Shown: positions 36,585 through 63,389 of the stretch, in pieces
Numbering within the stretch: the first letter of the stretch is position 1
Layout of the letters: the number at the start of each line of letters is the position of its first letter
Origin: Pararhizobium sp. IMCC3301
GTDB lineage: Bacteria; Pseudomonadota; Alphaproteobacteria; Rhizobiales; GCA-2746425
DNA length: 64,000 nucleotides
Assembly (NCBI RefSeq): GCF_030758315.1
Contig: NZ_CP132336.1
Location: 310,001-374,000, forward strand
Reading direction: 5' to 3'
Notes under the pieces: model-generated
The model's input: the letters and a program-made list of their open reading frames with translations, nothing else
What the model was told of the DNA's origin: nothing
Databases searched by the model: none
Program-made: the position numbers and the translations under genes

Positions 36585-37592
36585 ATGACCGCCACGACAC
36601 TTGCCGGCCTGCTGGACCAAAAGCCTGTTCTTCTGGCGGATGGTGCCACCGGCACCAATTTCTTTGATCTGGGCCTTGGACCGGGCGATCCGCCGGAATT
36701 CTGGAACCTCGACGCGCCCGAGAAGGTAACAGCCCTGCATCAGGCATTTGTCGATGCAGGCTCTGACATTATCCTCACCAACACTTTTGGTTCAAATGCG
36801 CCGCGCCTGAAGCTGCACAAGGCTCAGGACCGGGTGTTTGAATATAATGAAGCCGGAGCCCGGCTTGCTCGCGCAGTGGCCGACGAGACCGATCGGCCGG
36901 TAGTGGTTGCCGGGTCAGTCGGACCGACCGGCGAATTGTTCGAGCCGCTTGGCGAAATGACCTATGATGATGCCGTCAAAGCCTTTGTTGACCAGATGCT
37001 GGGTCTGAAGGCCGGCGGTGCCGATGTTGCCTGGATTGAAACCATGTCTGCCAAAGAAGAAATGCAGGCTGCTGCAGATGCCGCCAATATTTGCGACCTG
37101 CCCTATGTGGTTACCGCCAGTTTCGATACAGCCGGCATGACGATGATGGGCCTGCCGCCCTCTGAAATGCCGCATCTGCTGGATAGCATGGAGACGAGGC
37201 CAGTGGCGGTCGGCGCCAATTGCGGTGTTGGTGCCTCTGATCTGCTGATGTCGGTTCTGTCCATGTCAGAGCAACCCGGTGACATGGTCATCGTCGCCAA
37301 GGCCAATTGCGGCATTCCCCAGGTCAGAGGCGATCAGGTCGAATATACCGGCACACCGGATCTGATGGCCGATTATATCAGGCTTGCGGTTGACGCTGGC
37401 GCACGCATTATCGGCGGCTGCTGCGGCACCTCTCCGCTTCATCTGGCGGCGATGCGCCAGGCCCTCGACGCTCACCACAAGGGCGACCGGCCGGATGAAG
37501 CCATGATAGTCGAAACCATCGGCCCCATCATCAACCCGGTCTCAACAGGTGCCGGAAAGACAGAGCGGCGGCCGCGACGGCGCGGACGTTAA
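36585..37592 (+). CDS. Homocysteine S-methyltransferase domain protein (BHMT/MetH module 1)
   Basis: 335 residues from the ATG at 36585; the longer in-frame start at 36525 would put the palindrome close to the ribosome site and adds a non-family sequence. The Hcy-binding TIM barrel has LLADGATGTNFFDLGL, ILTNTFGSN, AGSVGPTGE and the zinc ligands C213 (GANCGVG), C279 and C280 (GGCCGT). It moves a methyl group to homocysteine. As there is no other MetH module in it, the donor could be a betaine or the methyl-corrinoid protein of this island. The C-terminus ends in an Arg-rich tail (KTERRPRRRGR). Confidence 0.88.
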   Translation: MTATTLAGLLDQKPVLLADGATGTNFFDLGLGPGDPPEFWNLDAPEKVTALHQAFVDAGSDIILTNTFGSNAPRLKLHKAQDRVFEYNEAGARLARAVADETDRPVVVAGSVGPTGELFEPLGEMTYDDAVKAFVDQMLGLKAGGADVAWIETMSAKEEMQAAADAANICDLPYVVTASFDTAGMTMMGLPPSEMPHLLDSMETRPVAVGANCGVGASDLLMSVLSMSEQPGDMVIVAKANCGIPQVRGDQVEYTGTPDLMADYIRLAVDAGARIIGGCCGTSPLHLAAMRQALDAHHKGDRPDEAMIVETIGPIINPVSTGAGKTERRPRRRGR

Positions 37593-37621
37593 GGCACTTC
37601 GCGCACCAAAGCCGGTAAGCA

Positions 37622-39148
37622 TCAATCCAGCAGGCTGTCTTTCATGCGTTGCACTGTTTCCGCCGGCGCATCGTTTTCCGCCATCAGGCGGAACAGGGCT
37701 GCGTTGAGCCGCTCAGTGACCTGCGGATCATCGATCGGTGTCGTCTGGCCCGGATCCGTCTCCAGATCATAAAGCACCGTCGTCGTATCCAGCATTTTCT
37801 CCGGAAAATGATAGGAATGGGTTTTGGTATCGGCTTTCGATCTGTGCGCGACACGCAACAGCGGCACACCCTTGGTAAAATCGAACGGCCCTACCAGGCT
37901 GGCGCTCTTCAACTCGTCCACCGTGAACATTTTCGTCATGTGGGTCGGCATCAGAGTATATTGATAAAGCTCCTGGTTCTGCATGTCTTTCGGGTAACAG
38001 AAATAGGTATAGCGCCCGTCGACCACATTGATGCCGCCGCCCCAGTAGCCGAAAATCGCGGCCTCACGATCCGACTCGTCTTTTTCCAGCAGACGCAGGA
38101 GAGACTGGCCGGCCACTTCTGCCGGAATTTCGGCCCCGTGAATTTCGCAGATCGTTGGCATCAGATCGATTGTCTGGGTCAGGCTTTTGCGGCGCTGGCC
38201 CGCCTTGTCCTTGTGGTCGGGGTGATAGACGAACAGCGGGATGTGGGAAATCTCCTCATACATCGGCATCCGGTTCTTGGCCCACCAGTCATGTTCGCCC
38301 AGCAGAAAACCGTGATCGGTGGTCAGGATCAGTGCGGTGTCCTTCCACATGTCATGTTCGTCGAAATAATCCAGAAACTTGCCCAGCAATTCATCGCACA
38401 GGGTCAGCAGCGCCATGTAATTGGCGCGAAGTTCATCGATCTCGTCCTGGGGCTCGCTCACGCGTTCATAGCGCGGCCAGTCAAGGATCGGGCCCTCATA
38501 GTCGGTTTGAAACTTTTCCTTGAGCCGCGCGGGCGCAAAAAACGGCTCATGCGGATCAAAGGTTTCAATCTGCAAAAACCAGTTATCGGCGTTGCGGTTC
38601 TTGTCGAGAAATTCATATCCGGCGGCGAAACACTTCACCGATGGAAAATCCGCCTCCTCTTTGATGAATTCCCGGTTGATCATGTAATGATACGGGTTCT
38701 GTTTCGAAGCCGGATCGTTCTGGCTGGGATGATATTGTTCCCGGATCCGGTCAATCGGTGCCTCAAGCATCACCTTCCAGGGATCGGATTCCTGACCCCT
38801 GATAAAATCAAACGAATTGTAGCGGGTGTGGTAGGTCGCCCCGCCATCCTCAAAATAATGGTAGTGGTCCGAAATAAGATGCGAATAGGACCCGGAGGAT
38901 TTCAAAAGCTCGGGAAACGAATTGTCAAATGGCTCCAAAGGCCCCCATGAGCGATGCAGGAACGTATGCCGCCCGCTTTGCATATCGCGCCGCGCGGGCA
39001 TGCACGGCATGGAGCCGATATAATGATTGTCAAATGTCACCGAACGCTCGGCCAGACGTTTGAAATTCGGTGTTTTGAGCAACTCGCCACCATAAGGCTC
39101 CAACATCAGCCTGTTGACGGAATCAAACAGCAGGAAAACGGTTTTCAT
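37622..39148 (-). CDS. Type I sulfatase (formylglycine-dependent), substrate unknown
   Basis: 508 residues, no signal peptide, so cytosolic. Sulfatase signature C49-M-P-A-R53 (SMPCMPARRDMQSGR), where C49 would become formylglycine, with metal ligands at the start (FLLFDSVNR) and in TTDHGFLLGEHDWWAKN. It hydrolyses a sulfate ester after import by the adjoining CUT1 transporter, of which it is the last gene (30 bases after the ATPase). It is unlike choline sulfatase BetC, which has CSPSR. No sulfatase-maturing enzyme is in the window. Substrate class is inferred only from context. Confidence 0.85.
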   Translation of the reverse strand: MKTVFLLFDSVNRLMLEPYGGELLKTPNFKRLAERSVTFDNHYIGSMPCMPARRDMQSGRHTFLHRSWGPLEPFDNSFPELLKSSGSYSHLISDHYHYFEDGGATYHTRYNSFDFIRGQESDPWKVMLEAPIDRIREQYHPSQNDPASKQNPYHYMINREFIKEEADFPSVKCFAAGYEFLDKNRNADNWFLQIETFDPHEPFFAPARLKEKFQTDYEGPILDWPRYERVSEPQDEIDELRANYMALLTLCDELLGKFLDYFDEHDMWKDTALILTTDHGFLLGEHDWWAKNRMPMYEEISHIPLFVYHPDHKDKAGQRRKSLTQTIDLMPTICEIHGAEIPAEVAGQSLLRLLEKDESDREAAIFGYWGGGINVVDGRYTYFCYPKDMQNQELYQYTLMPTHMTKMFTVDELKSASLVGPFDFTKGVPLLRVAHRSKADTKTHSYHFPEKMLDTTTVLYDLETDPGQTTPIDDPQVTERLNAALFRLMAENDAPAETVQRMKDSLLD

Positions 39149-39178
39149 ATGCGGGCCTCAACTCTTGTGGTGTTCATT

Positions 39179-40246
39179 CTATCCGATCTCGATGCGCGTC
39201 CGGCTTTCCGGATCAAACAGGTGGATTTGCCCGGGATCAAATTTCAAATTCAGCGCAGCGCCATCATTGATCCGGCGCACTTCCGGCAGCCTGACCTTGA
39301 TCATGTCAACTCCGTAGAGGCAGTTTAAAAGCATGCCCTCGCCAAGGTTTTCCGACAGATAAAGACTGGCCTTCAGACCACTATCCGACAGCGTGATGTG
39401 GCTCGGTCGAATTCCCAGGATAACCGGTCCCGGCGGCCGCGTATTCTGGCCTGGCAAAGCCAGCCGGTAATCGCCAATCCGAATTTCTGAACCATCCAGT
39501 TGTGCGGCGATCAAATTCATCGGAGGACTGCCGATAAAGGCAGCGACAGCCATATTGGCGGGCTTGTTGAATACCTCGTCCGGAGTTCCGATCTGGGCAA
39601 TCTCGCCGTCCAGAAAAACCGCCATCCGGTCCGCCAGCGTCATCGCTTCTTCCTGATCATGGGTCACATAGACCGCAGTCACGTCGAGTTCGCGTTGCAG
39701 CTTTTTCAGCTCAACCCGGGTTTCAAGGCGCAACTGGGCGTCCAGGTTGGACAGCGGCTCGTCGAGCAGGAAAAGTTTTGGCTGGCGCACAATGGCACGG
39801 GCCAGGGCGCAGCGCTGCTGCTGTCCGCCGCTCAATTGGCCGGGTCGGCGATGCAACAGATGGTCAATCTTGACCTTCGCTGCCGCTTCACGGACACGGC
39901 CGGGAATGTCTGCCTTCGGCACTTTGTCCATCTTCAGCGGAAAGCCGATATTTTCAGCCAGTGTCATATGCGGATAAAGCGCATAGTTCTGGAACACCAT
40001 CGCCACGTCGCGCTCGCCGGGTGGGCCGAAGGTGACGTCCTCATCGTCGACAAAGATCGCGCCATCATCGGGCGTTTCGAGGCCGGCAATGACACGTAAA
40101 GTCGTGCTTTTGCCCGATCCTGAGGGCCCGAGCAGTGCGAAGAACTCGACCGGTTCGATTTCCAGATCTATGGATTTCAGCGCTTCGAAACTGCCGAAGA
40201 CCTTGCGCACGCCGCGCAGGGAGATGCGGCCCTTTTTGTTACTCAT
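39179..40246 (-). CDS. CUT1-type ABC transporter ATP-binding protein (UgpC/MsmK-like)
   Basis: 355 residues from the ATG at 40246, which overlaps the permease stop (ATGA). Walker A GPSGSGKSTT, Q-loop (VFQNYALYPHMT), signature LSGGQQQR, Walker B LFLLDEPLSNLD and H-loop (YVTHDQEEAM). A C-terminal TOBE-like regulatory domain (GIRPSHITL) follows. The ATPase of an importer for sugars, glycerophosphodiesters or similar compounds. The exact solute is unknown; the downstream sulfatase suggests a sulfate ester. Confidence 0.92.
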   Translation of the reverse strand: MSNKKGRISLRGVRKVFGSFEALKSIDLEIEPVEFFALLGPSGSGKSTTLRVIAGLETPDDGAIFVDDEDVTFGPPGERDVAMVFQNYALYPHMTLAENIGFPLKMDKVPKADIPGRVREAAAKVKIDHLLHRRPGQLSGGQQQRCALARAIVRQPKLFLLDEPLSNLDAQLRLETRVELKKLQRELDVTAVYVTHDQEEAMTLADRMAVFLDGEIAQIGTPDEVFNKPANMAVAAFIGSPPMNLIAAQLDGSEIRIGDYRLALPGQNTRPPGPVILGIRPSHITLSDSGLKASLYLSENLGEGMLLNCLYGVDMIKVRLPEVRRINDGAALNLKFDPGQIHLFDPESRTRIEIG

Positions 40247-41097
40247 CGTCTGCCTCCGCCTTTGACCGCACCCACGGTCAGGCCTTTTACAATCTGCTTT
40301 TGCGCAAACACGCCAATCAGGATCATCGGGATCATCGCAATCAGGGCTGCAGCGCTGAGCTTGGCCCACAGGGTCTGTTCGACAGACACAAAATTATACA
40401 TCGCCACGGTCACCGGACGCACAGTGTTGCCGCCCAGTTGAACTGCAAACAAAAACTCATTCCAGGCGTTGAGGAAGACGAAGATGACCGTCACCGCGAT
40501 GCCGCCACGCACCTGCGGCAGGATAACGTGCCAGAGGGTTTGCAAACGGCTGGCCTTGTCCAGAAATGCAGCCTCTTCCATTTCGAAGGGAATATCTTCC
40601 ATGTAGGAAACCAGCAGCCAGATCGCAAAAGGCAGCGAAAACGTCAGATAAACGGTGACCATACCCTGATACGTATCCAGCCAGCCGACCTTGTTGAGGA
40701 TCAGAAAATAGGGAATCACCAATCCCACCGGCGGCACCATTTGCGTCGCCAGCGTATAAAACCCCAAAGCCGCCTTGCCGCGCAGTTTCAAGCGGGCAAA
40801 TGCATAGGCAGCAGGTACGGCCATGGCGATTGTCAGGATCGTCGTGGCGGTGGCAACGATCACGCTGGTCACCAGGCTGGGGAGAATCGATATCCCGCCA
40901 AACAGCGCATCCTTGTAATTCTGCACGGTCGGCTCGAAAATGACCCGTGGCGGATAGGCCATCACCTCGGCTTCAGACTTGAGCGACACCAGCACCGCCC
41001 AGAACAGCGGAAAAACCCATATGAACAGCAGAATTGAAGCGATCGCAAAAAGCACTGTGCTGCGCATCAGTCTTTGTCGTTTTCGGTTGGAGTTCAT
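40243..41097 (-). CDS. CUT1-type ABC transporter permease (MalG/UgpE-like)
   Basis: 284 residues with six predicted membrane helices, the first at about 12-33. The EAA loop (EMEEAAFLDKASRLQTLWHVILPQVRG) contacts the ATPase and is followed by a membrane helix. Co-translated with the ATPase through an ATGA overlap and starting three bases after the other permease. It belongs to the second-permease class by its length and the short basic N-terminus. Confidence 0.9.
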   Translation of the reverse strand: MNSNRKRQRLMRSTVLFAIASILLFIWVFPLFWAVLVSLKSEAEVMAYPPRVIFEPTVQNYKDALFGGISILPSLVTSVIVATATTILTIAMAVPAAYAFARLKLRGKAALGFYTLATQMVPPVGLVIPYFLILNKVGWLDTYQGMVTVYLTFSLPFAIWLLVSYMEDIPFEMEEAAFLDKASRLQTLWHVILPQVRGGIAVTVIFVFLNAWNEFLFAVQLGGNTVRPVTVAMYNFVSVEQTLWAKLSAAALIAMIPMILIGVFAQKQIVKGLTVGAVKGGGRR

Positions 41098-41100
41098 GAG

Positions 41101-41994
41101 CTAGCCTCGCCTTGCCGTGCGCAGATAGAACAACACGCCCGACACCGCCATGGTGATCACCAGAAGCGAGACGGCCAGCGCCGAACCGTAGCCGAAATTC
41201 AGTTCCACAAATGAAGTTTTGTAAGCATAGAGGTTGAGAATCTCGGTGGCAGTGCCGGGGCCACCACCGGTCGCCGCAAAGATTGCCGCAAAGGCCGACA
41301 GCGCGATCATCGAACGCATGATCACCACGATCACGATGGCCGGACGGATCAGCGGCAGGGTAATATGAATAAAGCGCTGTACCGGGTTGGCGCGGTCGAT
41401 TTTTGCAGCCTCGTAAAGATCCGGCGGCAGGGAGGCAAGGCTCGCCAGCAGCACCAGAAAGGCAAAGGGTGTCCATTGCCAGGTGTGAATGATGATCACC
41501 GAGATCAGCGCAGGAACCGGCGCGCCAAGCCAGTTGACGCTCTCAAATCCAAGCGCGCGAACAATGAAATCGACAATGCCGAAATTGGGCGCGAGCATCA
41601 ATGTGCGCCAGAACAGCCCGACCACAACCGGTGCCAGCACAATCGGCAGAATGGCAGCCAGCCGGAACACCCACTGCCCTTTTGGAATCTGGATCACCAT
41701 AAGGGCCAGACCCAGCCCGATAATCAGTTGCAGCGCTACTGAGCTCACGGTGTAAATCGCCGTCAGCTTGAGTGAGAACCAGAACTGGGTATCCCCCATC
41801 ATCCGGGCATAATTATCCAATCCGGCAAAGCCGTTGCTCCACGGCATCGCCAGATTGAGGTTCAGGAACGAGTTCCAGATCAGATAAGCCAGCGGAAACG
41901 TTGTCGTCAGGATCAGCACCGCTATTCCGGGGCTGACCATGAGCAGGGCAAAACCCCGCTCGGTGGAAAAATATCCGCGTTTACGCTGCGCCAT
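41101..41994 (-). CDS. CUT1-type ABC transporter permease (MalF/UgpA-like)
   Basis: 297 residues with six membrane helices (first FALLMVSPGIAVLILTTTF). The EAA loop (PDLYEAAKIDRANPVQRFIHITLPLIRP) matches the binding-protein-dependent transport signature. Twenty-one bases separate it from the solute-binding gene upstream. Together with the next permease it forms the membrane channel of the importer. Confidence 0.9.
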   Translation of the reverse strand: MAQRKRGYFSTERGFALLMVSPGIAVLILTTTFPLAYLIWNSFLNLNLAMPWSNGFAGLDNYARMMGDTQFWFSLKLTAIYTVSSVALQLIIGLGLALMVIQIPKGQWVFRLAAILPIVLAPVVVGLFWRTLMLAPNFGIVDFIVRALGFESVNWLGAPVPALISVIIIHTWQWTPFAFLVLLASLASLPPDLYEAAKIDRANPVQRFIHITLPLIRPAIVIVVIMRSMIALSAFAAIFAATGGGPGTATEILNLYAYKTSFVELNFGYGSALAVSLLVITMAVSGVLFYLRTARRG

Positions 41995-42015
41995 AACCTG
42001 ATCCGCCTGCCGAAC

Positions 42016-43443
42016 TTAGCCTTTCAGAATGCCATCGATTTTGGCCTGCGCTTCGTTCAACGCATCGCTCACACTGGACTGGCCGACAAGGCTGGCCTGA
42101 ATCGCCGTCGCCATCGTGTCACCAACGGCAGGCCATTGTGGCAGACGCGGCCGCCAGTCGACATCGGTATCTTCAGCAAAGGATGTTGTCACAGCTTCGA
42201 TGAAATTGTCACCGGCTGATCCCAAGACTGAGCGATAGGCATCAAGGTTCCACAACGATGTGCGGTTTGCGCCGCTGCGCTTGTAGGCACCCGGGAAGGC
42301 ATAGCTGGTTGCCGCCTGGGTTTCCCTGGAAGCCGCCCACTGAATGAACAGCCATGTTGCAGCCTTGTCTTTTTCGGATAGCGCAGCATTGATCGGAAAA
42401 CTCCAGTTCCAGATCGACGTGACGCGCTTGCCGGATGGCCCCTTGGGCCAGCGTGCAAAGCCGATTTTGCCGACAACCTTGGATTTTTCCGGGTTGGCTA
42501 TCACCGCAGCCGAGCCATGGGCGTCAATGTAAGAAGCCACTGTGCCCTGACCGAATGCATCAGCGATATCGGGCCAGTTCCAGTTCTCGACACCTTCGGG
42601 CGCATAATTGTTCAACAGGTTCACATACCATTCCAGCGCCCCGATGGCCTCTTCAGTGTTGACCGTCATATCGCCGGAACTGTTGAACCATTCACCGCCA
42701 AAGGCGCGGAAAATCGACGGGTAGATATACATGTTCTGCCCCGCACCTTTAAAGCCGCGCAGCGCCGCACCCCAGAGCCGGTTTGCCGGGTCATGGGCCG
42801 CCGCCGCATTGGAAGTGAATTGCTCCAAAGTATCGGCTGGCATCAATCCGCGTTCGTCAAAGACATCCTTGCGGTAAACCTGAATGGTGGCCTCGCCATC
42901 ATATGGAATGCCATAAGGGCGGCCATCGACCGACGTTGTGCCGCGCCAGCCCGCCAGAATATCCTCATAGCGGAACCAGTCATTATCGGTCAGCTTTGCA
43001 TCGCCCAGATAGCCATCAAGCGGGTCGACCCAGCCATTGGCAACGTATAGCGGATAATACATCGGATCCGCCGCATGACTGGCCCAGGTGCCAGTCCCGC
43101 TGGATAGATCAAGAACCGCCTTTTGCCGGATCTGGCCTGGAGGCGTCATTTCAAGCCGTGCGTTGACGCCGGTCAGTTCGACGAAATCTTCCAGAACAGC
43201 TTCGAGATTCTGGAAGTAACCGGCGGGTATCACGCCAATGGTGATGTTGGCACCTTCTGCTTGCCGCCAGTCAATTCCAGCCTGACGGAATGAATCCAGA
43301 TCCATATTTTTGCCTGCCGCATGGGCACCTTGCGTCAAAATGCCCGGCGCCGCCATCGTCGCCAGGCCTGCCGCTGTCACTTTCAAAGCCGTTCGGCGGG
43401 TCACAAATGGACTTTTCATTTTTTGCCGATCCTGATGTGTCAT
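42016..43443 (-). CDS. Extracellular solute-binding protein family 1 of the CUT1 importer
   Basis: 475 residues from the ATG at 43443 (GGGAGG about eight bases upstream); the longer in-frame start at 43524 is rejected on that ground. An N-terminal twin-arginine-like signal (FVTRRTALKVTAAG, then an A-rich hydrophobic stretch to about 43) indicates folded export. The mature part is a SBP_bac_1 fold (PYDGEATIQVYRKDVFDERG; WATWLFIQWAAS-like C-terminal region). First gene of the importer-sulfatase operon, divergent from the GntR gene and facing its operator. The ligand is unknown. Confidence 0.88.
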   Translation of the reverse strand: MTHQDRQKMKSPFVTRRTALKVTAAGLATMAAPGILTQGAHAAGKNMDLDSFRQAGIDWRQAEGANITIGVIPAGYFQNLEAVLEDFVELTGVNARLEMTPPGQIRQKAVLDLSSGTGTWASHAADPMYYPLYVANGWVDPLDGYLGDAKLTDNDWFRYEDILAGWRGTTSVDGRPYGIPYDGEATIQVYRKDVFDERGLMPADTLEQFTSNAAAAHDPANRLWGAALRGFKGAGQNMYIYPSIFRAFGGEWFNSSGDMTVNTEEAIGALEWYVNLLNNYAPEGVENWNWPDIADAFGQGTVASYIDAHGSAAVIANPEKSKVVGKIGFARWPKGPSGKRVTSIWNWSFPINAALSEKDKAATWLFIQWAASRETQAATSYAFPGAYKRSGANRTSLWNLDAYRSVLGSAGDNFIEAVTTSFAEDTDVDWRPRLPQWPAVGDTMATAIQASLVGQSSVSDALNEAQAKIDGILKG

Positions 43444-43547
43444 GTTGGTATTCCTCCCGAGTGAAAGCCCAGATCCCTTTCGGTTCTGGATAATTCGACT
43501 TGCAGCAATCGGCCACATTGGCATAGCTGCGCGAATAGGTTAGGTTT

Positions 43548-43580
43548 ATACGTCCTAAACGTACCTATTTTAGAACGTAT
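43548..43580. promoter_or_regulatory. Large inverted repeat between the importer operon and gntR (probable GntR operator)
   Basis: ATACGTCCTAAA - 9 bases - TTTAGAACGTAT has 12-base arms with one mismatch, centred between the divergent solute-binding and GntR genes. It lies about 105 bases before the SBP start and 30 bases before the GntR start. Such a site fits an autoregulated GntR/HutC repressor. Its element ACGTTCTAA recurs upstream of mttB1. Confidence 0.6.
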
Positions 43581-43609
43581 GTGCAAGAAGGAATGGGAAA
43601 GCAAGCGAA

Positions 43610-44332
43610 ATGTTCCGCAATACCCACATACCCAGATATGTTCAGCTTGCCGATGTCATGCGCAGCAGAATCCGTCGCGGCCAATGGAAGCCAAACGATA
43701 TTCTGCCATCAATTGAAGACCTTATGGCCGAATTTGGGACGGCTCGCGTCACCGTCAGACAGGCCACCAGAATCCTCTCCGACGAGGGGCTTTTGTCACC
43801 TCAGCGCGGACGCGGAACGTTTGTGACCGAGGCGGCAGGACGCAATCGCAAACTGGTGGTTGAAACCACACTGGACGATCTGGTTGAGATGTATCGCGGC
43901 GATATGCCCGATCTTTCCAATGTAGATGAAACGGAATTGCAACCGGTCCTGACCGACAATGACGGCGTCGCGGCGCCTCATTATACACATATGCGCCGGG
44001 TTCACTCGCGCGATGGCGAACCATATTGCGTTGTTTCGATTTTTCTCGATGACCGGGTGTTCGCGCTGGCACCCGACAGATTTCGCACAGAGGTTGTTCT
44101 ACCGCTGATAACATCGCTGCCCGGCGTGAATATCACCGGGGCGCGTCAGACCCTGTCGATTGCATCTGCCGAGATGGAAGTCGCGCGCAGTCTCGATATT
44201 CCACTGGGTTCGCCCGTGGCGGATGTGCGCCGGGTGCTTCTCGGGCCGGATAAAACAGTGCTGTATCTTGGCGAAGCGACCTATCGAGGGGATTACATCC
44301 GGCTGGACATGGATCTCAAACCCAGCCGTTAG
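43610..44332 (+). CDS. GntR-family (HutC/UTRA subfamily) transcriptional regulator
   Basis: 240 residues. N-terminal winged HTH (LADVMRSRIRRGQWKPNDILPS; FGTARVTVRQATRILSDEGLL; QRGRGTFV) and C-terminal UTRA effector-binding domain (about 90-235, PYCVVSIFLDDRVFAL; TYRGDYIRLDMDL). It is divergent from the ABC importer-sulfatase operon and sits beside its probable operator, so it is the likely regulator of that operon. A shared element suggests mttB1 as a second target. It ends ten bases before the convergent mttB2. Confidence 0.9.
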   Translation: MFRNTHIPRYVQLADVMRSRIRRGQWKPNDILPSIEDLMAEFGTARVTVRQATRILSDEGLLSPQRGRGTFVTEAAGRNRKLVVETTLDDLVEMYRGDMPDLSNVDETELQPVLTDNDGVAAPHYTHMRRVHSRDGEPYCVVSIFLDDRVFALAPDRFRTEVVLPLITSLPGVNITGARQTLSIASAEMEVARSLDIPLGSPVADVRRVLLGPDKTVLYLGEATYRGDYIRLDMDLKPSR

Positions 44333-44342
44333 ACGTCAGACC

Positions 44343-46007: not shown

Positions 46008-46135
46008 GATCCACGCCTTCAAAAGAAACCTGTAGCAAAGATGCCGCACAGAACCGATATGCCGCGTTCATATTGCGTCATACAGCACATGCTTTCGCGA
46101 CAGACTGTACCGTCGTTTTTATGATGCTGCAGGTC

Positions 46136-46229
46136 GTTTCCAGCAGCAGGAAACATAAAGCATTTGCGGAATACTCTTGCAATTCAATGCTTGGTGTCGC
46201 AGACGATGATCGAGTACTGACAACGTCAG
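46136..46229. promoter_or_regulatory. Divergent promoter region between mttB2 and the corrinoid gene, with two inverted repeats
   Basis: The 237-base gap 46008-46244 holds no gene. Two exact inverted repeats stand out: GTTTCC-AGCAGCA-GGAAAC at 46136-46154 and CTGAC-AAC-GTCAG at 46217-46229. The second lies 15 bases before the corrinoid-protein ATG and can act as operator or mRNA hairpin. The half-site ACATAAAG follows the first repeat but has no symmetric partner. Regulator unknown. Confidence 0.35.
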
Positions 46230-46244
46230 AGGGTGAGGTAGTTT

Positions 46245-46949
46245 ATGTCCGATGATGAAGATGACATCATACTGTCCGAGTTGAATGATGAAGAGCTCGT
46301 TCTGCAAATGCATGACGATCTGTATGACGGGCTCAAAGAAGAAATTGCGGAATCCGTAAATATTCTGCTGGCGCGGGATTGGACCCCTTACGAAGTTCTG
46401 ACCAAGGCTCTGGTAGAAGGAATGCGGATTGTCGGCATCGACTTCCGCGATGGCATCCTGTTTGTTCCCGAGGTTCTTCTGGCAGCCAATGCGATGAAAC
46501 AGGGCATGGGTATATTGCGCCCTTTGCTGACGGAAACCGGCGCGCCCAAAGTCGGCACCATGGTGATCGGCACCGTCAAGGGCGATATTCATGACATCGG
46601 CAAAAACCTCGTCGGCATGATGATGGAAGGCGCGGGCTTCGATGTGATTGATCTGGGCATCAACAATCCGGTCGAGGATTATCTGGCGGCCATCGAAGAG
46701 CACAAACCCGATATCCTTGGCATGTCTGCTTTGCTCACTACAACTATGCCCTATATGAAGGTTGTCATTGATACCATGAAGGAAATGGGTATCCGTGACG
46801 ATCATATCATCCTTGTCGGCGGCGCACCGCTGAATGAGGAATTTGGTCTCGCCATCGGGGCCGATGCCTATTGCCGCGACGCCGCTGTAGCCGTCGAAAC
46901 CGCCAAGGAATGGATGGCGCGCAAACACAATCAGCGGGCCACCGCGTAA
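46245..46949 (+). CDS. Corrinoid-binding methyl-carrier protein (MtbC/MttC, MetH B12-module type)
   Basis: 234 residues. An N-terminal helical cap (B12-binding_2, about 20-100) is followed by a Rossmann B12 domain with the ligand motif D114-I-H116-D-I-G119 (GTVKGDIHDIGKN), then SALLTTTMPYMK and VGGAPLNEEFGLAIGADAY. H116 would be the lower axial ligand of cobalt. It shuttles methyl groups between methyltransferases. It is the only corrinoid carrier in the window, so both MttB proteins, the pterin enzyme and the homocysteine enzyme probably share it. GAGGTAGTTT precedes the ATG. Confidence 0.93.
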   Translation: MSDDEDDIILSELNDEELVLQMHDDLYDGLKEEIAESVNILLARDWTPYEVLTKALVEGMRIVGIDFRDGILFVPEVLLAANAMKQGMGILRPLLTETGAPKVGTMVIGTVKGDIHDIGKNLVGMMMEGAGFDVIDLGINNPVEDYLAAIEEHKPDILGMSALLTTTMPYMKVVIDTMKEMGIRDDHIILVGGAPLNEEFGLAIGADAYCRDAAVAVETAKEWMARKHNQRATA

Positions 46950-46992
46950 TTCTGCCGGGAGTGTTGCGCCTCCCCGCCACGGGAGCTGACAC

Positions 46993-47652
46993 ATGCATCT
47001 TCCAAATGACAAGGTTCTGACGGAACAGGGTTTCGGAGAAGCCGGGACCGGCTCGATCCTGCTGATCGGCTGCGGCGCTCTGGCCCGCGAGATATTGGCG
47101 CTGAAAGCGGCTAATTCCTGGGACTACATGGTTTTGCGTTGTCTGCCAGCGAAGCTGCATCTTTATCCCGAGCAGATTACTCCTGCGGTGCGTGAGGCGA
47201 TCCGGAAAGGTCGCGCCGATGGTTTTCAAACCATCTATATCCTCTACGCTGATTGCGGCACTGGCGGTCATCTCGACACTTTATGTGCTGAGGAAGGCGT
47301 GGAGCGCATCGCCGGCCCGCATTGCTATTCCTTTTTTGACGGCAATGACGCATTTGCGGAACGGGCAGAGGCGGAAATGCGCGTGTTTTACCTGACCGAT
47401 TTTCTGGTCAAGCAGTTTGATGCCTTTGTCTGGAAACCGATGGGGCTTGATCGTCATCCTGAATTGCGTGACATGTATTTTGGCAATTATGAAAAACTGA
47501 TCTATCTGGCGCAAACCGAGGATCCCGCCCTCACCGCCAAGGCGGCAACCTGCGCTGACCGTCTCGGATTGCGCTTTGAACGCCGCGCATCCGGCTACGG
47601 CGATCTGGCAAGCGCCATGAAAAACCTTGCCGGAGGCAGAGTGAAAGCCTAG
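46993..47652 (+). CDS. DUF1638 protein, likely accessory of corrinoid methyl transfer
   Basis: 219 residues with conserved cysteines that look like a metal or cofactor site: C27 (LIGCGALARE), C50 (LRCLPAKLHLYPE), C88 (YADCGTGGHLD), C98 and C111 (GPHCYSFFDG). DUF1638 genes are known neighbours of corrinoid methyltransferases in methanogens and bacteria, but their activity is undefined. It follows the corrinoid gene by 43 bases and is cytosolic. A role in corrinoid or thiol chemistry is inference only. Confidence 0.75.
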   Translation: MHLPNDKVLTEQGFGEAGTGSILLIGCGALAREILALKAANSWDYMVLRCLPAKLHLYPEQITPAVREAIRKGRADGFQTIYILYADCGTGGHLDTLCAEEGVERIAGPHCYSFFDGNDAFAERAEAEMRVFYLTDFLVKQFDAFVWKPMGLDRHPELRDMYFGNYEKLIYLAQTEDPALTAKAATCADRLGLRFERRASGYGDLASAMKNLAGGRVKA

Positions 47653-47787
47653 AGGACGGTTCGCAGTTAGCCCGACAGCCGTAAAAATCCTTCAAATCGC
47701 TTGCGCAGTCGCATTCCCACAATGTCATGTCGCTGGCGACGCATCGCAAATCCCACATCAACCACATTGTCACATCAGGAGCAGCCA

Positions 47788-48102
47788 ATGGCACAGAAGA
47801 CCATCGTGTACTGGAAAGACATTCCGACGCAGATCATCGTCAAGGCGGGACGCAAGGCCGCCAAGCGGGAATTGCCGGAATATTTCATTCAATCGGTGGA
47901 CCAATGCGCCATGCGGCTTGGGGCCAAAGACAGTGATGCCTATCTGGAAGAATGGCGGCGCGGGTCGCCGGAAGAGGTGTCAGGTGATTTGGAAACAGAG
48001 GCGGATCAAGCGTTGGAAGCGCTGATTGCGGCCTACCCCAGGACGCGGCTCAAGGCTTTGATTGATGCTGGAGGCGTTGACCATGGAACTAACGGCCCTT
48101 AG
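47788..48102 (+). CDS. PF13769-type ('virulence factor') small protein coupled to MetF-like gene
   Basis: 104 residues, cytosolic, without signal peptide. VYWKDIPTQIIVKAGRKAAKRELPEYF and AMRLGAKDSDAYLEEWRR match the short domain usually labelled virulence factor. An AGGAGC lies before the ATG. Its last 20 bases overlap the MetF-like start in another frame, so the two are translationally coupled. Its place in a C1 operon argues for a role with the folate reductase or the corrinoid system rather than virulence. A 135-base spacer separates it from the DUF1638 gene. Confidence 0.7.
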   Translation: MAQKTIVYWKDIPTQIIVKAGRKAAKRELPEYFIQSVDQCAMRLGAKDSDAYLEEWRRGSPEEVSGDLETEADQALEALIAAYPRTRLKALIDAGGVDHGTNGP

Positions 48103-48967
48103 ACGGCGGCTCAAGATCACAATTGAGGCTTCGCCCAAACAGGTCTTGTCGACCGATGAAATGGGGTCATTGTTTCCCAAGGGAACCTGGGTCTATCTGA
48201 CGGATGTCGGTATTGATCCGCTCGAAACGATCATTGCGTCGGCGGCAAAGTTGCGTGCTTGCGGCTATGTGCCGGTGCCGCATATTCCGGCACGACGGAT
48301 CAAAAGCGCAGAGGCGCTGGAATTGCGGATTGCACGCCTCAGCGCAGAAGCGGACGTTGACAATGTGCTGCTGATTGCCGGAGAGGCTGAACGGCAGATG
48401 GGGCCCTACTCCGCCTCCATCGAGATACTGCGCAGCGACATTTTGAACCGCTACGCAGTCCGGCGCATCGCTGTCGCGGGCCATCCGGAGGGCAGCACCG
48501 TGATCCCAGCCGATATGGTGCGCGCAAGTCTGCTGGAAAAGGCCGACTACGCCAGCAATACCGATGCCGAAATGCGCATTGTCACCCAGTTTGGATTTGA
48601 TGCCCCGCGCTTCATCGCCTGGGCCGACAGTCTGCCGGCCAAGGGCATTCACCTGCCGGTTCACATGGGTATGGCCGGACCGGCAAAAATGACGACCCTG
48701 ATCAAATATGCTGCCATTTGCGGCGTCGGGGCCTCAATGGGTTTCCTGAAAAAGCGCGGCTCGGCTCTGGCCGCCCTGGCGATGGGCTTTGACCCGGACC
48801 CGATATTGCAGGCTGTGGAAGACCATATTACGCAAAATCCGTTTTCTCCGCTGCAAGCTGCACATATATTTCCGTTCGGCGGATTGAAAAAATCTGCGAA
48901 TTGGCTTGACGAACGGGGCCTTTGGGACATAAAGAAATCTTTATATCTTGATGCAAATGTGGTTTAA
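48083..48967 (+). CDS. Short methylenetetrahydrofolate reductase-like protein (MetF superfamily)
   Basis: 294 residues from the ATG at 48083, with GGAGG eight bases upstream inside the preceding gene. The N-terminal stretch TIEASPK resembles the MetF beta1 motif with its catalytic Glu. Later parts follow the TIM-barrel pattern (VPHIPARRIKS; LLIAGE; IAVAGHPEG; RIVTQFGFD; PVHMGMAGPAK). It would interconvert methylene-THF and methyl-THF. In this island it may oxidise methyl-THF from demethylation or supply methyl-THF for methionine. The 3' end contains the second near-palindrome. Confidence 0.8.
   Translation: MELTALRRRLKITIEASPKQVLSTDEMGSLFPKGTWVYLTDVGIDPLETIIASAAKLRACGYVPVPHIPARRIKSAEALELRIARLSAEADVDNVLLIAGEAERQMGPYSASIEILRSDILNRYAVRRIAVAGHPEGSTVIPADMVRASLLEKADYASNTDAEMRIVTQFGFDAPRFIAWADSLPAKGIHLPVHMGMAGPAKMTTLIKYAAICGVGASMGFLKKRGSALAALAMGFDPDPILQAVEDHITQNPFSPLQAAHIFPFGGLKKSANWLDERGLWDIKKSLYLDANVV
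48929..48944. promoter_or_regulatory. Perfect palindrome before the pterin methyltransferase (SahR-like site?)
   Basis: ATAAAGA-AA-TCTTTAT has exact seven-base arms. It lies inside the 3' end of the MetF-like gene, 57 bases before the next ATG. It matches the element upstream of the homocysteine methyltransferase (36496-36513) over a 22-base stretch with two differences. A common regulator is probable; SahR identity is my recollection of the motif. Confidence 0.55.
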
Positions 48968-49001
48968 CACACATAATTGCTAACAACATTGGAATTGTCC
49001 C

Positions 49002-49955
49002 ATGACCCAGACTGTTGTCGCGTCCCAAACGCGCACGGCCCTTATCGGCTTCGACCAACCATTCTGCGTGATCGGCGAACGGATTAATCCAACCGGCCGC
49101 AAGAAGCTTGCAGCCGAAATGCTGGCCGGCAATTTCGATACCGTAAAGGCCGACGCACTGGCGCAGGTCGCCGCCGGCGCCACCATGCTTGACGTCAATG
49201 CCGGTGTCACCAGCATTGATCCCAACCTGAGCGAGCCACCGCTGCTGGCCGCGACTATCGAATTGGTACAGTCGCTGGTTGATATACCGCTTTGTATCGA
49301 TTCCTCGGTTCCCGCCGCTTTGGCGGCAGCGCTGGCAGTGTGCAAGGGCCGCCCTCTCGTCAACTCCGTCACCGGAGAAGTCGACCGGCTCGAGCTGGTG
49401 CTGCCGCTGTGCAAGAAATACGATGTGCCGGTGATTGCCATTTCCAATGACGAAACCGGCATCTCGGAAGATCCGGACGTGCGCTTTGAGGTGGCCAAAA
49501 AGATCGTCGAACATGCCATGGATTACGGTATCAAGCCGCATGACATTGTTGTCGATCCGCTGGTCATGCCGATCGGCGCCATGGGCACGGCGGGTCTGCA
49601 GGTGTTCGCGCTTTTGCGCCGCCTGCGCGAAGAATTGAAAGTCAACACCAGCTGCGGCGCATCCAACGTCTCATTTGGTCTGCCGCACCGTCATGGTATC
49701 AATGCGGCGTTTCTGCCGATGGCGATTGCCTCGGGCATGACGTCTGCGATCATGAACCCCTGCCGCCCCGTAGAAATGGAAGCAATCCATGCGGCAAATG
49801 TGCTGATGGGCACAGATGCCAATTGCCAGACCTGGATTTCCACCTATCGCGATCATGTGCCGGGAAACACAACCTCACCGACTGCAGCACCGGCGGCTCC
49901 CGGCGGCCGCCGCCGCGGCGGTCGCGAAGCGCGGCGGCCCAGGGCAACTGCATAA
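49002..49955 (+). CDS. Pterin-binding methyltetrahydrofolate methyltransferase (MetH module 2 / AcsE-MtrH type)
   Basis: 317 residues. A DHPS-like TIM barrel with the methyl-THF signature VIGERINPTGRKKLAAEM, QVAAGATMLDVNAGVTS, CIDSSVPAALAA, VNSVTGE and NTSCGASNVSFGLPHR. It transfers methyl between THF and the corrinoid protein. After the barrel (about 280) it ends with an Arg-rich tail (PGGRRRGGREARRPRATA). It stands between the MetF-like and the activator gene, and the SahR-like site precedes it. A similar stand-alone module serves split MetH. Confidence 0.9.
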   Translation: MTQTVVASQTRTALIGFDQPFCVIGERINPTGRKKLAAEMLAGNFDTVKADALAQVAAGATMLDVNAGVTSIDPNLSEPPLLAATIELVQSLVDIPLCIDSSVPAALAAALAVCKGRPLVNSVTGEVDRLELVLPLCKKYDVPVIAISNDETGISEDPDVRFEVAKKIVEHAMDYGIKPHDIVVDPLVMPIGAMGTAGLQVFALLRRLREELKVNTSCGASNVSFGLPHRHGINAAFLPMAIASGMTSAIMNPCRPVEMEAIHAANVLMGTDANCQTWISTYRDHVPGNTTSPTAAPAAPGGRRRGGREARRPRATA

Positions 49956-49970
49956 ACCGGAGATGCTCAA

Positions 49971-52043
49971 TTGAGCGAGACATTGGCTGCCGACGCAACG
50001 ACAGAGCCTGACGTGGAAGAAGAAGCCCTGGTGCTCTTCATGCCATCGGGTCGGCGCGGAAATTTTCCGGTCGGCACGCCGGTTCTCGATGCCGCCCGCT
50101 CGCTTGGTGTCTATATTGAATCGGTCTGCGGCGGGCGCGGCATATGCGGGCGCTGTCAGGTTGTGGTCGCAGAAGGCCGGTTTGCCAAACACGGCATCAC
50201 CAGTTCAGCCGACCATCTGGCGGCATTCACCGATACCGAGGCGCGGTATCGCGCCAAACGTATACTGGCCGACGACCGCCGTTTGTCTTGCTCTGCGAAA
50301 GTCACTGGCGATATCGTTATCGACATTCCACAGGATGTCCAGACGCAGCGTCAGGTGGTCCGCAAACGCGCCGAAAACCGCCGCATTGAGCGCGATCCGG
50401 CAATCAGACTGCATTTTGTCCAGGTTGAAGAGCCGGATATGGAACAGCCGCTGGGCGATCTCGACCGGTTGCTGGCTGCGCTGAAGAGTGAATGGCAACT
50501 GGACCATCTTCAGATCGATACCTGGCTCTATCCGAAAATCCAGAGCATTTTGCGAAAAGGCCATTGGGAAGCCACTGCCGCCGTACATACCAGAGACGGC
50601 ATCTCGACGCTGATCGGACTATGGCCCGGCTTCCACGATCAATTCTATGGTCTGGCCTTCGATATCGGTTCCACAACCATCGCCTGCCATCTGTCAGATA
50701 TGATGAGCGGGCGCACAATCGCCTCCTCCGGCACGTCAAATCCCCAGATCCGCTTTGGTGAAGATCTGATGTCGCGCGTCTCCTATGTAATGATGAATCC
50801 GGGCGGTGAGGAACAACTGACGAAAACAGTGCGTGACGCGGTTCGCACCCTGATTGAAAAAGTCTGCACCGATGCTGCCATCAGCCGGCATGATATTCTG
50901 GATTCCGTTTTCGTCGGCAATCCGGTGATGCACCACCTGCTTCTCGGCATCGATCCAACCGAGCTGGGCGGTGCACCCTTTGCGCTGGCGGTTTCAGGCG
51001 CTCTTGATTTTCCGGCACGGGAGCTGGATCTTGACCTTCATCCCGGCGCGCGCACCTATATGCTGCCCTGTATTGCCGGTCATGTCGGGGCGGATGCGGC
51101 AGCTGTCACGCTGGCAGAGGCCCCACACAAGGAAGAGGACTACACTTTGGTGGTCGATGTCGGCACCAATGCTGAAATCATGCTTGGCAACAAACAGCGG
51201 GTCGTGGCGGCATCTTCGCCAACCGGTCCTGCCTTTGAAGGCGCGGAAATTTCCTGTGGCCAGCGCGCCGCTCCCGGAGCCATTGAACGGGTCCGGATTG
51301 ATCCGGTGACACTTGAACCGCGCATCAAGGTAGTCGGCGTCGACGAATGGTCTGATGATCCCGCTTTTGCCAGACATGTGGAAGCGGTGGGCGTTACCGG
51401 TGTATGCGGCTCAGGCATCATTGAAGTTGTCGGTGAAATGTTTCTGGCCGGGCTGATTGATGAAGATGGTGTTCTTCAGGGTGCGATGGCGGAAAAATCC
51501 GACCGGGTGATTTCGGATGGCCGCACCTTCAGCTACATTTTATGGCGCGACCGAGTTGAGCTGAAGATCACCCAGACTGATATCCGCTCCATTCAACTGG
51601 CCAAAGCTGCGCTCTATGCCGGTATTAGACTGTTGATGGACAAACTGGCTATTTCACAGATCCGCAAGATAAAACTCGCCGGGGCTTTCGGCAGTTATAT
51701 CGACCCGAAATATGCCATTCTGATCGGGCTCATCCCGGATTGTGATCTGACCAAAGTCTCCGGCGTTGGCAACGCTGCCGGCACCGGTGCGCGTATGGCT
51801 TTGCTCAATCGCGGACACCGGCTGGAGATTGAAAATCTGGTCCGCCGCATCGAAAAAATCGAGACAGCGCTTGAGCCCAAATTTCAGGAGCACTTTGTCA
51901 ACGCAATGGCCTTTCCCAACAAGGTCGATGCCTTTCCCAATCTGGCTCAGGCGGTGGAACTGCCCGTCAGAAAACAAACCACATCCGGCGACGCCGATGG
52001 CAGACCGGCGCGTCGGCGCCGGCGGTCTCGCCCGACAGCATAA
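49971..52043 (+). CDS. Corrinoid activation protein RACo/RamA-like (2Fe-2S plus ASKHA/DUF4445)
   Basis: 690 residues from a TTG at 49971, chosen because GGAG lies nine bases upstream and the ferredoxin domain needs residues before the next in-frame ATG (codon 24). Plant-type 2Fe-2S site C53-x5-C59-x2-C62 and C107; linker; ASKHA ATPase core (LAFDIGSTTIACHL; VGTNAEIMLGN; GVCGSGIIEV; KLAGAFGSYID). Relatives use ATP and reduced ferredoxin to return Co(II) to Co(I). It ends with an Arg-rich tail (GRPARRRRRSRPTA). An activator like this is expected in air, where Co(I) is often oxidised. Confidence 0.9.
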   Translation: MSETLAADATTEPDVEEEALVLFMPSGRRGNFPVGTPVLDAARSLGVYIESVCGGRGICGRCQVVVAEGRFAKHGITSSADHLAAFTDTEARYRAKRILADDRRLSCSAKVTGDIVIDIPQDVQTQRQVVRKRAENRRIERDPAIRLHFVQVEEPDMEQPLGDLDRLLAALKSEWQLDHLQIDTWLYPKIQSILRKGHWEATAAVHTRDGISTLIGLWPGFHDQFYGLAFDIGSTTIACHLSDMMSGRTIASSGTSNPQIRFGEDLMSRVSYVMMNPGGEEQLTKTVRDAVRTLIEKVCTDAAISRHDILDSVFVGNPVMHHLLLGIDPTELGGAPFALAVSGALDFPARELDLDLHPGARTYMLPCIAGHVGADAAAVTLAEAPHKEEDYTLVVDVGTNAEIMLGNKQRVVAASSPTGPAFEGAEISCGQRAAPGAIERVRIDPVTLEPRIKVVGVDEWSDDPAFARHVEAVGVTGVCGSGIIEVVGEMFLAGLIDEDGVLQGAMAEKSDRVISDGRTFSYILWRDRVELKITQTDIRSIQLAKAALYAGIRLLMDKLAISQIRKIKLAGAFGSYIDPKYAILIGLIPDCDLTKVSGVGNAAGTGARMALLNRGHRLEIENLVRRIEKIETALEPKFQEHFVNAMAFPNKVDAFPNLAQAVELPVRKQTTSGDADGRPARRRRRSRPTA

Positions 52044-56042: not shown

Positions 56043-56693
56043 CTAAACCACAAGCCGTTCACCACCTGCAGGCTTCTCCTCTCTCATGCCAAACAGGCGC
56101 GCGGAGCGGGTAATGAGACACCACAGATAATCTGCCATAGAGGCACGGATGATCAGCCGAAAGGTCTCCGGCGCACCGGTATCGGTATGAAGCTGCCAGA
56201 CATGGGCATTGGCATGGCCGAAATTCGACCCCTTGACCTGCCCGGCAGCAAACCCGCGAGCGTGCATATCCAGTGTTGTCAGATTCATCAAGATCTCCCG
56301 GGTCTGGCATCCGCTGATATCAATGCAGCTATAATAATCAGTCACATTTGACAGTTGAAAATGCTGTCCGGTCAGCGCCTTCGACAGTTGAGCTTTCACC
56401 CTGGATTCGGCGTCTTTTTCGGTAACCAGCATCCATTCATCCGGTCCCAGCCACAAGATCGAAATCGCGCCATTTCCATAAAATGCCGTGGAACAGGGTT
56501 CTGTCGGCAGTCTGGCGCCCTTGCTGAGCTGGGTGAACAGCTCCTTTCCGATGGTCGCATCCACCCGCAGGATCAACTTTCCAAGATGAGCCGCTTCCTG
56601 CATGCTCAATCCATCGTCACCGAAGACCGGCAACCGATGCGACAGCACGCTTATGCGTTCCAGCGGCTCTCGCGTCACTTCAGATGGTGCCAT
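56043..56693 (-). CDS. soxG: Sarcosine oxidase gamma subunit
   Basis: 216 residues from the ATG at 56693; a GTG two codons earlier is possible. SoxG-type fold with LGKLILRVDATIGKEL, ISILWLGPDEWMLVT, TDYYSCIDISG and LIIRASMADYLW. Small subunit of the heterotetrameric sarcosine oxidase. It overlaps the soxA end by 14 bases, so it is last of soxBDAG. A short stem with A/T-rich sequence lies just after the stop (TGTGGT/ACCACA at 56027-56052) and may help end the transcript. Confidence 0.85.
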   Translation of the reverse strand: MAPSEVTREPLERISVLSHRLPVFGDDGLSMQEAAHLGKLILRVDATIGKELFTQLSKGARLPTEPCSTAFYGNGAISILWLGPDEWMLVTEKDAESRVKAQLSKALTGQHFQLSNVTDYYSCIDISGCQTREILMNLTTLDMHARGFAAGQVKGSNFGHANAHVWQLHTDTGAPETFRLIIRASMADYLWCLITRSARLFGMREEKPAGGERLVV

Positions 56694-60098: not shown

Positions 60099-60108
60099 GA
60101 CAGGCTCC

Positions 60109-61362: not shown

Positions 61363-61504
61363 CGCGCGAAGCATCTCCCGTTAGCCCAGAGCCAGACACC
61401 TGATGGCAAGGTCAGCGAACACTTTATTCGGTTCAATGTCCGGCATCTATCGTCAAGACGCTAGCGCAATTGTCTCTCTGCGACATCGAATTTCGCCAAA
61501 TTTG

Positions 61505-63184: not shown

Positions 63185-63389
63185 GCTGGATCCCACTGTG
63201 ACAGATTGATTTGAAAAGACATGTTCGGGTGCAACCACTGCGGCAAATCACCGGTTCGCCGCAATTTGATTGACTAAACATAGCTTTCGCCTTAACCCGA
63301 AAATGCTTTAAATGCGACATCCTCTGGTACGAAACCTGCCAAATTTTCATGGTACCAGTTTTGCGGTGCCGATTTTATCGACGCACCGT
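63185..63389. other. Divergent intergenic region between fhs and the GbdR-like gene
   Basis: About 205 bases with no gene. The region is A/T-rich near 63255-63315 and likely carries the fhs and gbdR-like promoters; no consensus box stood out. In-frame ATGs at 63312 and 63390 and a TTG at 63426 are possible starts of the next gene. Confidence 0.4.

What the first reader, a model, noticed from the sequence alone, without database searches (positions are those of the whole stretch)
36585..52043. Dissected MetH plus RACo activator: a shared corrinoid methyl hub
Seen: separate genes for the homocysteine module (36585-37592, zinc ligands C213/C279/C280), B12 module (46245-46949, H116) and pterin module (49002-49955). 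A RACo/RamA-like 2Fe-2S ATPase (49971-52043) is present and no AdoMet activation domain. Established, from memory: split MetH with a RamA-like activator is reported for Rhodobacterales. Inference: here one corrinoid carrier joins methionine synthesis with MttB-dependent demethylation, so methyl groups could go straight from a quaternary amine to homocysteine or to THF. Having all parts in one 20-kb island is unusual.
Basis: partly seen in the sequence, partly recalled or inferred. Interest (0 to 1): 0.82.

Follow-up and report, generated by a model that had tools for sequence, protein, structure and literature searches.

The report
Split B12 methyl-transfer hub (MtgBCDE)
A bacterium carries, in one gene island, a taken-apart vitamin-B12 enzyme that probably makes methionine and also strips methyl groups from glycine betaine with the same B12 protein; this dual system has already been described by experiment in other bacteria, so it is real but largely known.

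Summary
The window encodes separate homocysteine (MtgE), B12 (MtgC) and pterin (MtgD) modules with MetH-like active-site residues, a RACo/RamA-type activase, DUF1638, a MetF-like reductase and two MttB proteins, with dimethylglycine- and sarcosine-demethylation genes nearby. The 4.58-Mb genome shows one B12-cap protein, one homocysteine S-methyltransferase, two MttBs (both in the window) and no MetH activation domain, so one corrinoid carrier very probably serves both pathways. The main inference (a hub shared by methionine synthesis and quaternary-amine demethylation) is supported but already in print: Price 2018 (split MetH, RamA-like protein, DUF1638 in Phaeobacter) and Mausz 2025 (MtgC and MtgD needed for methionine and for glycine betaine use in Ruegeria). 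Co-location is not unusual: 43 of 65 related loci of 20 kb or more carry seven core genes. Still open: direct MttB-MtgC-MtgE transfer without folate. New here: a small PF13769 'virulence factor' protein occurs in 45 of 101 related genomes, all 45 with the RACo activase; it is a candidate unrecognised part.

The parts
32454..34043 (+). MttB1: second MttB-superfamily methyltransferase (paralogue), substrate unknown
   Evidence: PF06253 E 1.7e-203; best solved match 4yyc E 2.6e-115; the tyrosine of the modelled betaine site is Ala143
34065..36500 (+). FAD oxidoreductase + GcvT fusion, dimethylglycine/sarcosine dehydrogenase kind (exact substrate inferred)
   Evidence: DAO, FAO_M, GCV_T, GCV_T_C
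36585..37592 (+). MtgE: homocysteine methyltransferase module, zinc ligands C213/C279/C280
   Evidence: PF02574; 1q7m E 1.2e-39; residues; only PF02574 match in the genome
44343..46049 (-). MttB2/MtgB: probable glycine betaine:corrinoid methyltransferase
   Evidence: 4yyc E 1e-256, 2qne E 7.5e-127, 9yce E 7.6e-127; Y152, N256, R366, H402 (numbered from the start of this ORF) match the modelled betaine site of DhMtgB
46245..46949 (+). MtgC: corrinoid carrier (cap + B12 domain, H116)
   Evidence: PF02607/PF02310; 1y80 E 1.3e-51, MetH 1bmt E 6.4e-29; only PF02607 match in the genome
46993..47652 (+). DUF1638 protein; its P. inhibens relative is needed for methionine synthesis
   Evidence: PF07796; PMC5764234 passages; invariant C50, H56, C88, H110, C111 in 56 sequences
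47788..48102 (+). PF13769 'Virulence_fact' small protein, candidate accessory of the hub
   Evidence: PF13769 E 5.3e-25 (scanned from 47701); in 45 of 101 genomes, all 45 with RACo
48062..48967 (+). MetF2-like methylenetetrahydrofolate reductase (no Pfam match)
   Evidence: 7xg9 E 1.1e-42; weak TIGR00676/TIGR00677
49002..49955 (+). MtgD: methyl-THF:corrinoid methyltransferase (pterin module)
   Evidence: PRK07535 E 7.7e-117; 4o0q, 2yci, 1q7m
49971..52043 (+). RACo/RamA-type 2Fe-2S ASKHA corrinoid activase
   Evidence: 3zyy E 2.1e-93; Fer2 + RACo_linker + Raco_middle + RACo_C_ter; Cys 53/59/62/107 (cluster-ligand role inferred)
37622..44332 (.). Block between mtgE and mttB2: sulfatase, Ugp-like ABC transporter, GntR regulator; not part of the conserved hub
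   Evidence: sulfatase, both permeases, binding protein and GntR found in 0 of 80 loci and in none of 4 congener stretches
56043..63238 (-). Sarcosine oxidase gamma and alpha, a DAO protein and formate-THF ligase: downstream demethylation and C1 oxidation

Best explanation
This is an MtgBCDE system: a dissected, cobalamin-dependent methyltransferase in which one corrinoid protein (MtgC) takes methyl groups either from glycine betaine through MttB2/MtgB or from methyl-THF through MtgD, and gives them either to homocysteine through MtgE (methionine) or to THF through MtgD, followed by MetF2 oxidation. RACo/RamA, with DUF1638, restores cob(I)alamin. Shown here: gene content, active-site residues, one carrier, no MetH activation domain. 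Shown by others in other bacteria: mtgC and mtgD mutants lose both functions; RamA-like and DUF1638 mutants need methionine. Inferred: that this organism does the same, that MttB2 prefers glycine betaine, and any direct amine-to-homocysteine transfer.
For: Domain and residue matches. Own genome: one PF02607, one PF02574, two PF06253, no PF02965. Across 101 genomes including the own one: 26 of 49 with MtgC lack PF02965 against 5 of 52 without MtgC; Fisher p 2.9e-6, not corrected for kinship. A strong MtgE match occurs in 41 of 101, always with MtgC, and in 24 of the 26 MtgC+/PF02965- genomes. RACo is in 48 of 49 MtgC genomes and in 2 of 52 others. Genetics in other bacteria: PMC5764234 (passages) and PMC12478193 (Results and Discussion).
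Against: A MetE-like 376-aa gene (C1 about 1.945 Mb) could make methionine without MtgC, though it scores far below every NCBIfam methionine-synthase cut-off that it matched; Mausz report that P. inhibens has a core-MetE homologue and is still auxotrophic when mtgCDE are mutated. 17 of 23 MtgC+/PF02965+ genomes also keep MtgE, so MtgE is not only a MetH replacement. Two MtgC+/PF02965- genomes lack a strong MtgE match (G020 and G065, 88% and 86% complete). Purified P. inhibens Bmt, the MtgE counterpart, used betaine and DMSP directly in vitro (PMC12366255), which does not need MtgC. No substrate was tested here.
Confidence: 0.87

Rival explanations
1. MtgE is a stand-alone betaine:homocysteine methyltransferase (as NCBIfam names it) and MttB2-MtgC-MtgD is a separate catabolic enzyme; the two do not share a carrier.
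For: NCBIfam PRK07534 'betaine--homocysteine S-methyltransferase' above cut-off, 490 against 338 bits; in vitro betaine and DMSP activity of the P. inhibens counterpart (PMC12366255).
Against: Closer to MetH than to the BHMT of known structure (1q7m E 1.2e-39; BHMT 1lt7 E 7.2e-14); 0 of 41 genomes with a strong MtgE match lack MtgC; in P. inhibens and R. pomeroyi the corrinoid and pterin genes are needed for methionine; the same FEBS J paper says that Bmt did not replace DmdA in vivo in its dmdA mutant.
Confidence: 0.1
2. The MttB proteins use other quaternary amines, or substrates released from sulfate esters taken up by the sulfatase/ABC block, and glycine betaine is minor.
For: Sulfatase, Ugp-like permeases, binding protein and GntR sit beside MttB2 in this genome and in none of 80 loci or 4 congener stretches; MttB1 lacks the tyrosine of the modelled betaine site; Mausz note up to seven MttB-type ORFs in marine bacteria.
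Against: MttB2 stays next to mtgC in congeners that lack the block, matches 9yce 'glycine betaine methyltransferase' at E 7.6e-127 and keeps four of four modelled betaine-site residues; genes of the dimethylglycine/sarcosine oxidising kind lie in the same window.
Confidence: 0.2
3. MtgBCD is only catabolic here and methionine is made by the MetE-like gene.
For: A 376-aa PF01717 protein exists.
Against: Its best NCBIfam score is 93.8 bits against a cut-off of 406; its neighbours look catabolic by my own reading of ORF starts, not by a domain scan.
Confidence: 0.08

Closest known systems
MtgBCDE of Ruegeria pomeroyi DSS-3 (Mausz et al. 2025, PMC12478193)
   Same: Same modules; MtgC and MtgD shared by methionine synthesis and glycine betaine demethylation; MetF2, RamA, DUF1638
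   Different: In Ruegeria the genes are not together; here mtgE, mtgB, mtgC, mtgD and the activase lie in one island, as the paper reports for S. meliloti and as 43 of 65 loci show
Split methionine synthase of Phaeobacter inhibens (Price et al. 2018, PMC5764234)
   Same: Three-gene MetH, RamA-like (DUF4445) activase, DUF1638, no PF02965 domain
   Different: The passages that I saw deal with methionine only, not with demethylation
Glycine betaine methyltransferase of Desulfitobacterium hafniense (MtgABC; MtgB structure 2qne)
   Same: MttB-family MtgB with a separate corrinoid MtgC
   Different: Its MtgA lacks sequence identity with known structures (abstract of PMC7154762 in the listing), whereas MtgD here matches MeTr and MetH; I saw no methionine branch reported for it
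Classical MetH
   Same: Same three catalytic modules and ligands
   Different: Modules are separate proteins; no AdoMet activation domain; RACo present instead

Membership tests
MtgBCDE dual methyltransferase | Separate MttB-family, corrinoid, pterin and homocysteine proteins | tested here: met
MtgBCDE dual methyltransferase | No MetH, as in most carriers, so that MtgC is left as the methionine-branch carrier | tested here: met
   No PF02965, one PF02607, one PF02574 in the genome
MtgBCDE dual methyltransferase | RamA/RACo activase and DUF1638 present | tested here: met
MtgBCDE dual methyltransferase | mtgC and mtgD mutants lose both methionine prototrophy and glycine betaine growth | not testable with these tools
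   Shown in R. pomeroyi
MetH homocysteine module | Three zinc-binding cysteines | tested here: met
   C213, C279, C280 aligned to 1q7m; zinc binding itself not tested
MetH (full-length, with AdoMet activation domain) | PF02965 domain | tested here: not met
Betaine-homocysteine methyltransferase (BHMT) | Betaine-binding residues of animal BHMT | not tested
   No alignment to 1lt7 was printed; Mausz state that S. meliloti and other marine homologues lack them
Glycine betaine methyltransferase MtgB | Y94, N199, R309, H345 of DhMtgB (modelled site) | tested here: met
   MttB2: Y152, N256, R366, H402, read by me; MttB1 fails at the tyrosine; the site comes from docking
RACo/RamA activase | N-terminal 2Fe-2S domain, linker, middle and ASKHA C-terminal domain | tested here: met
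MttB with pyrrolysine | In-frame TAG read as pyrrolysine | tested here: not met
   Both MttB frames have no stop inside

The most novel reading that the evidence does not exclude
The small PF13769 protein, known only as a 'virulence factor', is an unrecognised working part of corrinoid methyl transfer in these bacteria, most likely an accessory of RACo-driven corrinoid reactivation or of the MtgD/MetF end of the pathway. It tracks RACo in 45 of 45 carrying genomes, stays with metF2 and mtgD where mtgC has moved away, and is present in a genome without MtgC whose RACo sits in an MtaA/CmuA-like corrinoid cluster.
Probability: 0.6. Interest if true: 0.45.

Novelty: new member of a known kind. Interest (0 to 1): 0.36.

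Why it matters
It supports, in a single-contig genome with no other B12-cap protein found, the recently published idea that B12-dependent methionine synthesis and osmolyte demethylation share one enzyme. With the hub in one island and no MetH background, such a genome is a clean setting for the open question of direct amine-to-homocysteine methyl transfer. The PF13769 link, if confirmed, would give a role to a family annotated only as a 'virulence factor'.

Tried and rejected
Considered and rejected: MetH fragments from a recent gene break (each module is a whole protein conserved in relatives); pyrrolysine MttB (no internal stop); an RNA switch controlling the island (no Rfam match at gathering threshold in the window); PF13769 as a dedicated partner of the MetF2 kind found here (51 of 66 PF13769 loci show no MetF2-like frame; in the three of these whose gene at that place I scanned, L056, L015 and L028, it is an ordinary PF02219 MTHFR; in L040 the spacing leaves no MetF between PF13769 and mtgD).

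Led nowhere: fold searches. DUF1638 (model pLDDT 92.9) and the PF13769 protein (87.6) gave no convincing PDB neighbour: DUF1638's best was a feruloyl esterase at E 9.2e-4 with TM-score 0.35 and 13.4 A rmsd; PF13769's best E was 0.74. phmmer found no solved DUF1638 relative at E up to 1. The term PF13769 is in no paper of the held library; 'virulence' does not occur in the main texts of PMC12478193, PMC5764234 and PMC10418091. Supplements were not searched.

Gene counts use tblastn at E 1e-8 and 40% coverage; a stricter recount with identity floors gave the same 43 of 65. metF2 is undercounted because other lineages have another kind of MetF. The ABC ATPase query has distant hits in 14 of 80 loci, as any ABC ATPase would. 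In 'mttB1 59' counts cross-hits to mttB2; by position mttB1 itself is in one of 80 loci, L038, and in one of four congener stretches, L090, though the stretches of G001-G003 reach well upstream of mtgE. L038 and L090 show identical identities and gene spacing and are probably the same assembly. PF02965 stands in for MetH. The Fisher test ignores kinship. Presence of MtgC and MtgE was cut by me at E 1.8e-107 and 4.5e-87, at the gaps in the lists. Alignments given to the folding tool: the window's protein plus 55 of 76 extracted DUF1638 frames, and the window's plus 36 of 62 PF13769 frames, picked by me without a fixed rule (some near-duplicates and frames of odd length left out).
Full report
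What is there. MtgE (36585-37592) aligns to the homocysteine module of 1q7m and keeps the three zinc cysteines C213, C279 and C280. MtgC (46245-46949) has the helical cap and the B12 domain with GDIHDIG, H116. MtgD (49002-49955) is of the methyl-THF:corrinoid methyltransferase kind. 49971-52043 has all four RACo domains. Between MtgC and MtgD lie DUF1638, a PF13769 protein and a MetF-like protein whose only strong solved relative is 7xg9. MttB2 (44343-46049) points away from mtgC; MttB1 (32454-34043) leads a run with a DAO/GcvT fusion and mtgE, 21 and 84 bases apart. Downstream are sarcosine-oxidase-type genes and formate-THF ligase. Together, by inference, these cover glycine betaine to dimethylglycine, sarcosine and glycine.

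Is it the cell's only such system? The window lies in a genome of 4,583,537 bases in one contig, rated 98.19% complete. Family searches of this genome give two MttB, both in the window, no MetH activation domain, one B12 cap and one PF02574 protein. PF01717 finds two pieces of one 376-aa protein; scanned whole it has 44.5 bits to PF01717 and lies far below the cut-off of each NCBIfam methionine-synthase model that it matches. So unless that gene makes methionine, MtgC carries both pathways.

Comparative test. In 101 genomes (own, 4 congeners, 96 of the same order) I scored MtgC as best E at or below 1.8e-107 (49 genomes), MetH as PF02965 (70), MtgE as E at or below 4.5e-87 (41), DUF1638 (44), PF13769 (45) and RACo (50). 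MtgC+/MetH+ 23, MtgC+/MetH- 26, MtgC-/MetH+ 47, neither 5. Each MtgE genome has MtgC (41 of 41); 24 of 26 MtgC+/MetH- genomes have MtgE, the other two being drafts of 88% and 86% completeness; 17 of 23 MtgC+/MetH+ genomes also have MtgE. Each DUF1638 genome has MtgC (44 of 44) and each PF13769 genome has RACo (45 of 45). This fits MtgE as a client of MtgC better than as a free-standing enzyme, but shared ancestry is not corrected for.

Is the island unusual? No. In 80 loci from named contigs the counts are DUF1638 79, MttB2 68, PF13769 66, MtgD 65, RACo 61, MtgE 53. Of 65 loci of at least 20 kb, 43 have all seven core genes, MtgC included. Congeners G001, G002 and G003 have mtgE, mttB2, mtgC, DUF1638, PF13769, metF2, mtgD and RACo in the same order; in G004 the contig stretch ends after mtgD. 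What sets this genome apart is a 6.7-kb block (sulfatase, Ugp-like ABC transporter, GntR regulator) between mtgE and mttB2: its sulfatase, permeases, binding protein and regulator were found in 0 of 80 loci and in none of the four congener stretches. Its G+C, 0.557, is near that of the window, 0.555. It may bring in a sulfate ester related to an MttB substrate; that is inference, and the sulfatase scores below the choline-sulfatase cut-off (103.7 against 433 bits).

Substrate. MttB2 matches the solved structure 4yyc at E 1e-256 and 2qne and 9yce at E about 1e-126 (that 4yyc is from S. meliloti is recalled). The four residues proposed from docking in D. hafniense MtgB (PMC6855144, passages) are Y152, N256, R366 and H402 in MttB2; in MttB1 the tyrosine is replaced by Ala143 (read by me from the alignments). 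A fifth position that the paper discusses, F353, is Gly in both, by the same reading. So MttB2 is the likely MtgB and MttB1 may act on another amine.

What is known. Price et al. 2018 (PMC5764234, passages) showed by fitness data that the three split-MetH genes, the RamA-like gene and DUF1638 of P. inhibens are needed for methionine. Mausz et al. 2025 (PMC12478193; Results and Discussion read) showed in R. pomeroyi that mtgC and mtgD mutants are methionine auxotrophs and cannot grow on glycine betaine, complemented mtgC, proposed the shared hub, and reported that S. meliloti has these genes together. The finding's central inference is therefore published. The FEBS J 2025 paper (PMC12366255; abstract, passages and one section read) reports direct betaine and DMSP use by the purified MtgE counterpart, which sits badly with the Mausz model and is unresolved. 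I saw no experiment on direct amine-to-homocysteine transfer through MtgC in the parts that I read.

What may be new. The PF13769 frame overlaps the metF2 frame in the window and lies upstream of mtgD on the same strand in 65 of 65 loci that have both. In five genomes whose mtgC locus has no mtgD within 10 kb (L008, L051, L053, L057, L077) it sits with metF2 and mtgD elsewhere (L092-L096). In G082 it lies with mtgD and RACo while mtgC is on another contig. In G015, which has no MtgC by my cut-off, it lies in a cluster with RACo, two corrinoid proteins about 40% identical to MtgC, two MtaA/CmuA-like URO-D proteins, a CobW-type GTPase and a MetF2-like protein. The MetF gene at that place differs: the 7xg9-like kind here, PF02219 in three loci scanned. 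This links PF13769 to RACo-dependent corrinoid chemistry more than to one MetF or one carrier. Against it: five RACo genomes lack it (G024, G026, G030, G050, G065), and among the controls B. subtilis rings for PF13769 but not for RACo, so the family has other uses. AlphaFold gives a confident small alpha/beta model for the best of five, but two of the five score only 66-68, with no PDB match.

Noticed in passing
window 37622-44332: Sulfatase, Ugp-like ABC transporter and GntR regulator between mtgE and mttB2, absent there in 80 loci and 4 congener stretches; substrate unknown.
   Followed up: partly
window 47788-48102: PF13769 'virulence factor' protein co-occurs with the RACo activase in 45 of 45 carrying genomes (of 101 searched); no paper in the held library names the family.
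   Followed up: partly
window 48062-48967: MetF-like protein without a Pfam match, close to 7xg9; three other loci scanned have an ordinary PF02219 MTHFR at the same place, an apparent gene replacement.
   Followed up: partly
L091:6878-8008 (own genome, C1 about 1,944,877-1,946,007): 376-aa core-MetE-like protein, far below methionine-synthase cut-offs, next to what looks like a catabolic operon.
   Followed up: partly
L103 (G015 C69:15000-32000): RACo-linked corrinoid cluster with MtaA/CmuA-like URO-D proteins, two corrinoid proteins, CobW-type GTPase, PF13769 and MetF2-like genes in a genome without MtgC.
   Followed up: partly
window 46993-47652: DUF1638 has invariant Cys and His residues (C50, H56, C88, H110, C111), as for metal or cofactor binding; confident fold model without a convincing PDB match.
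   Followed up: partly
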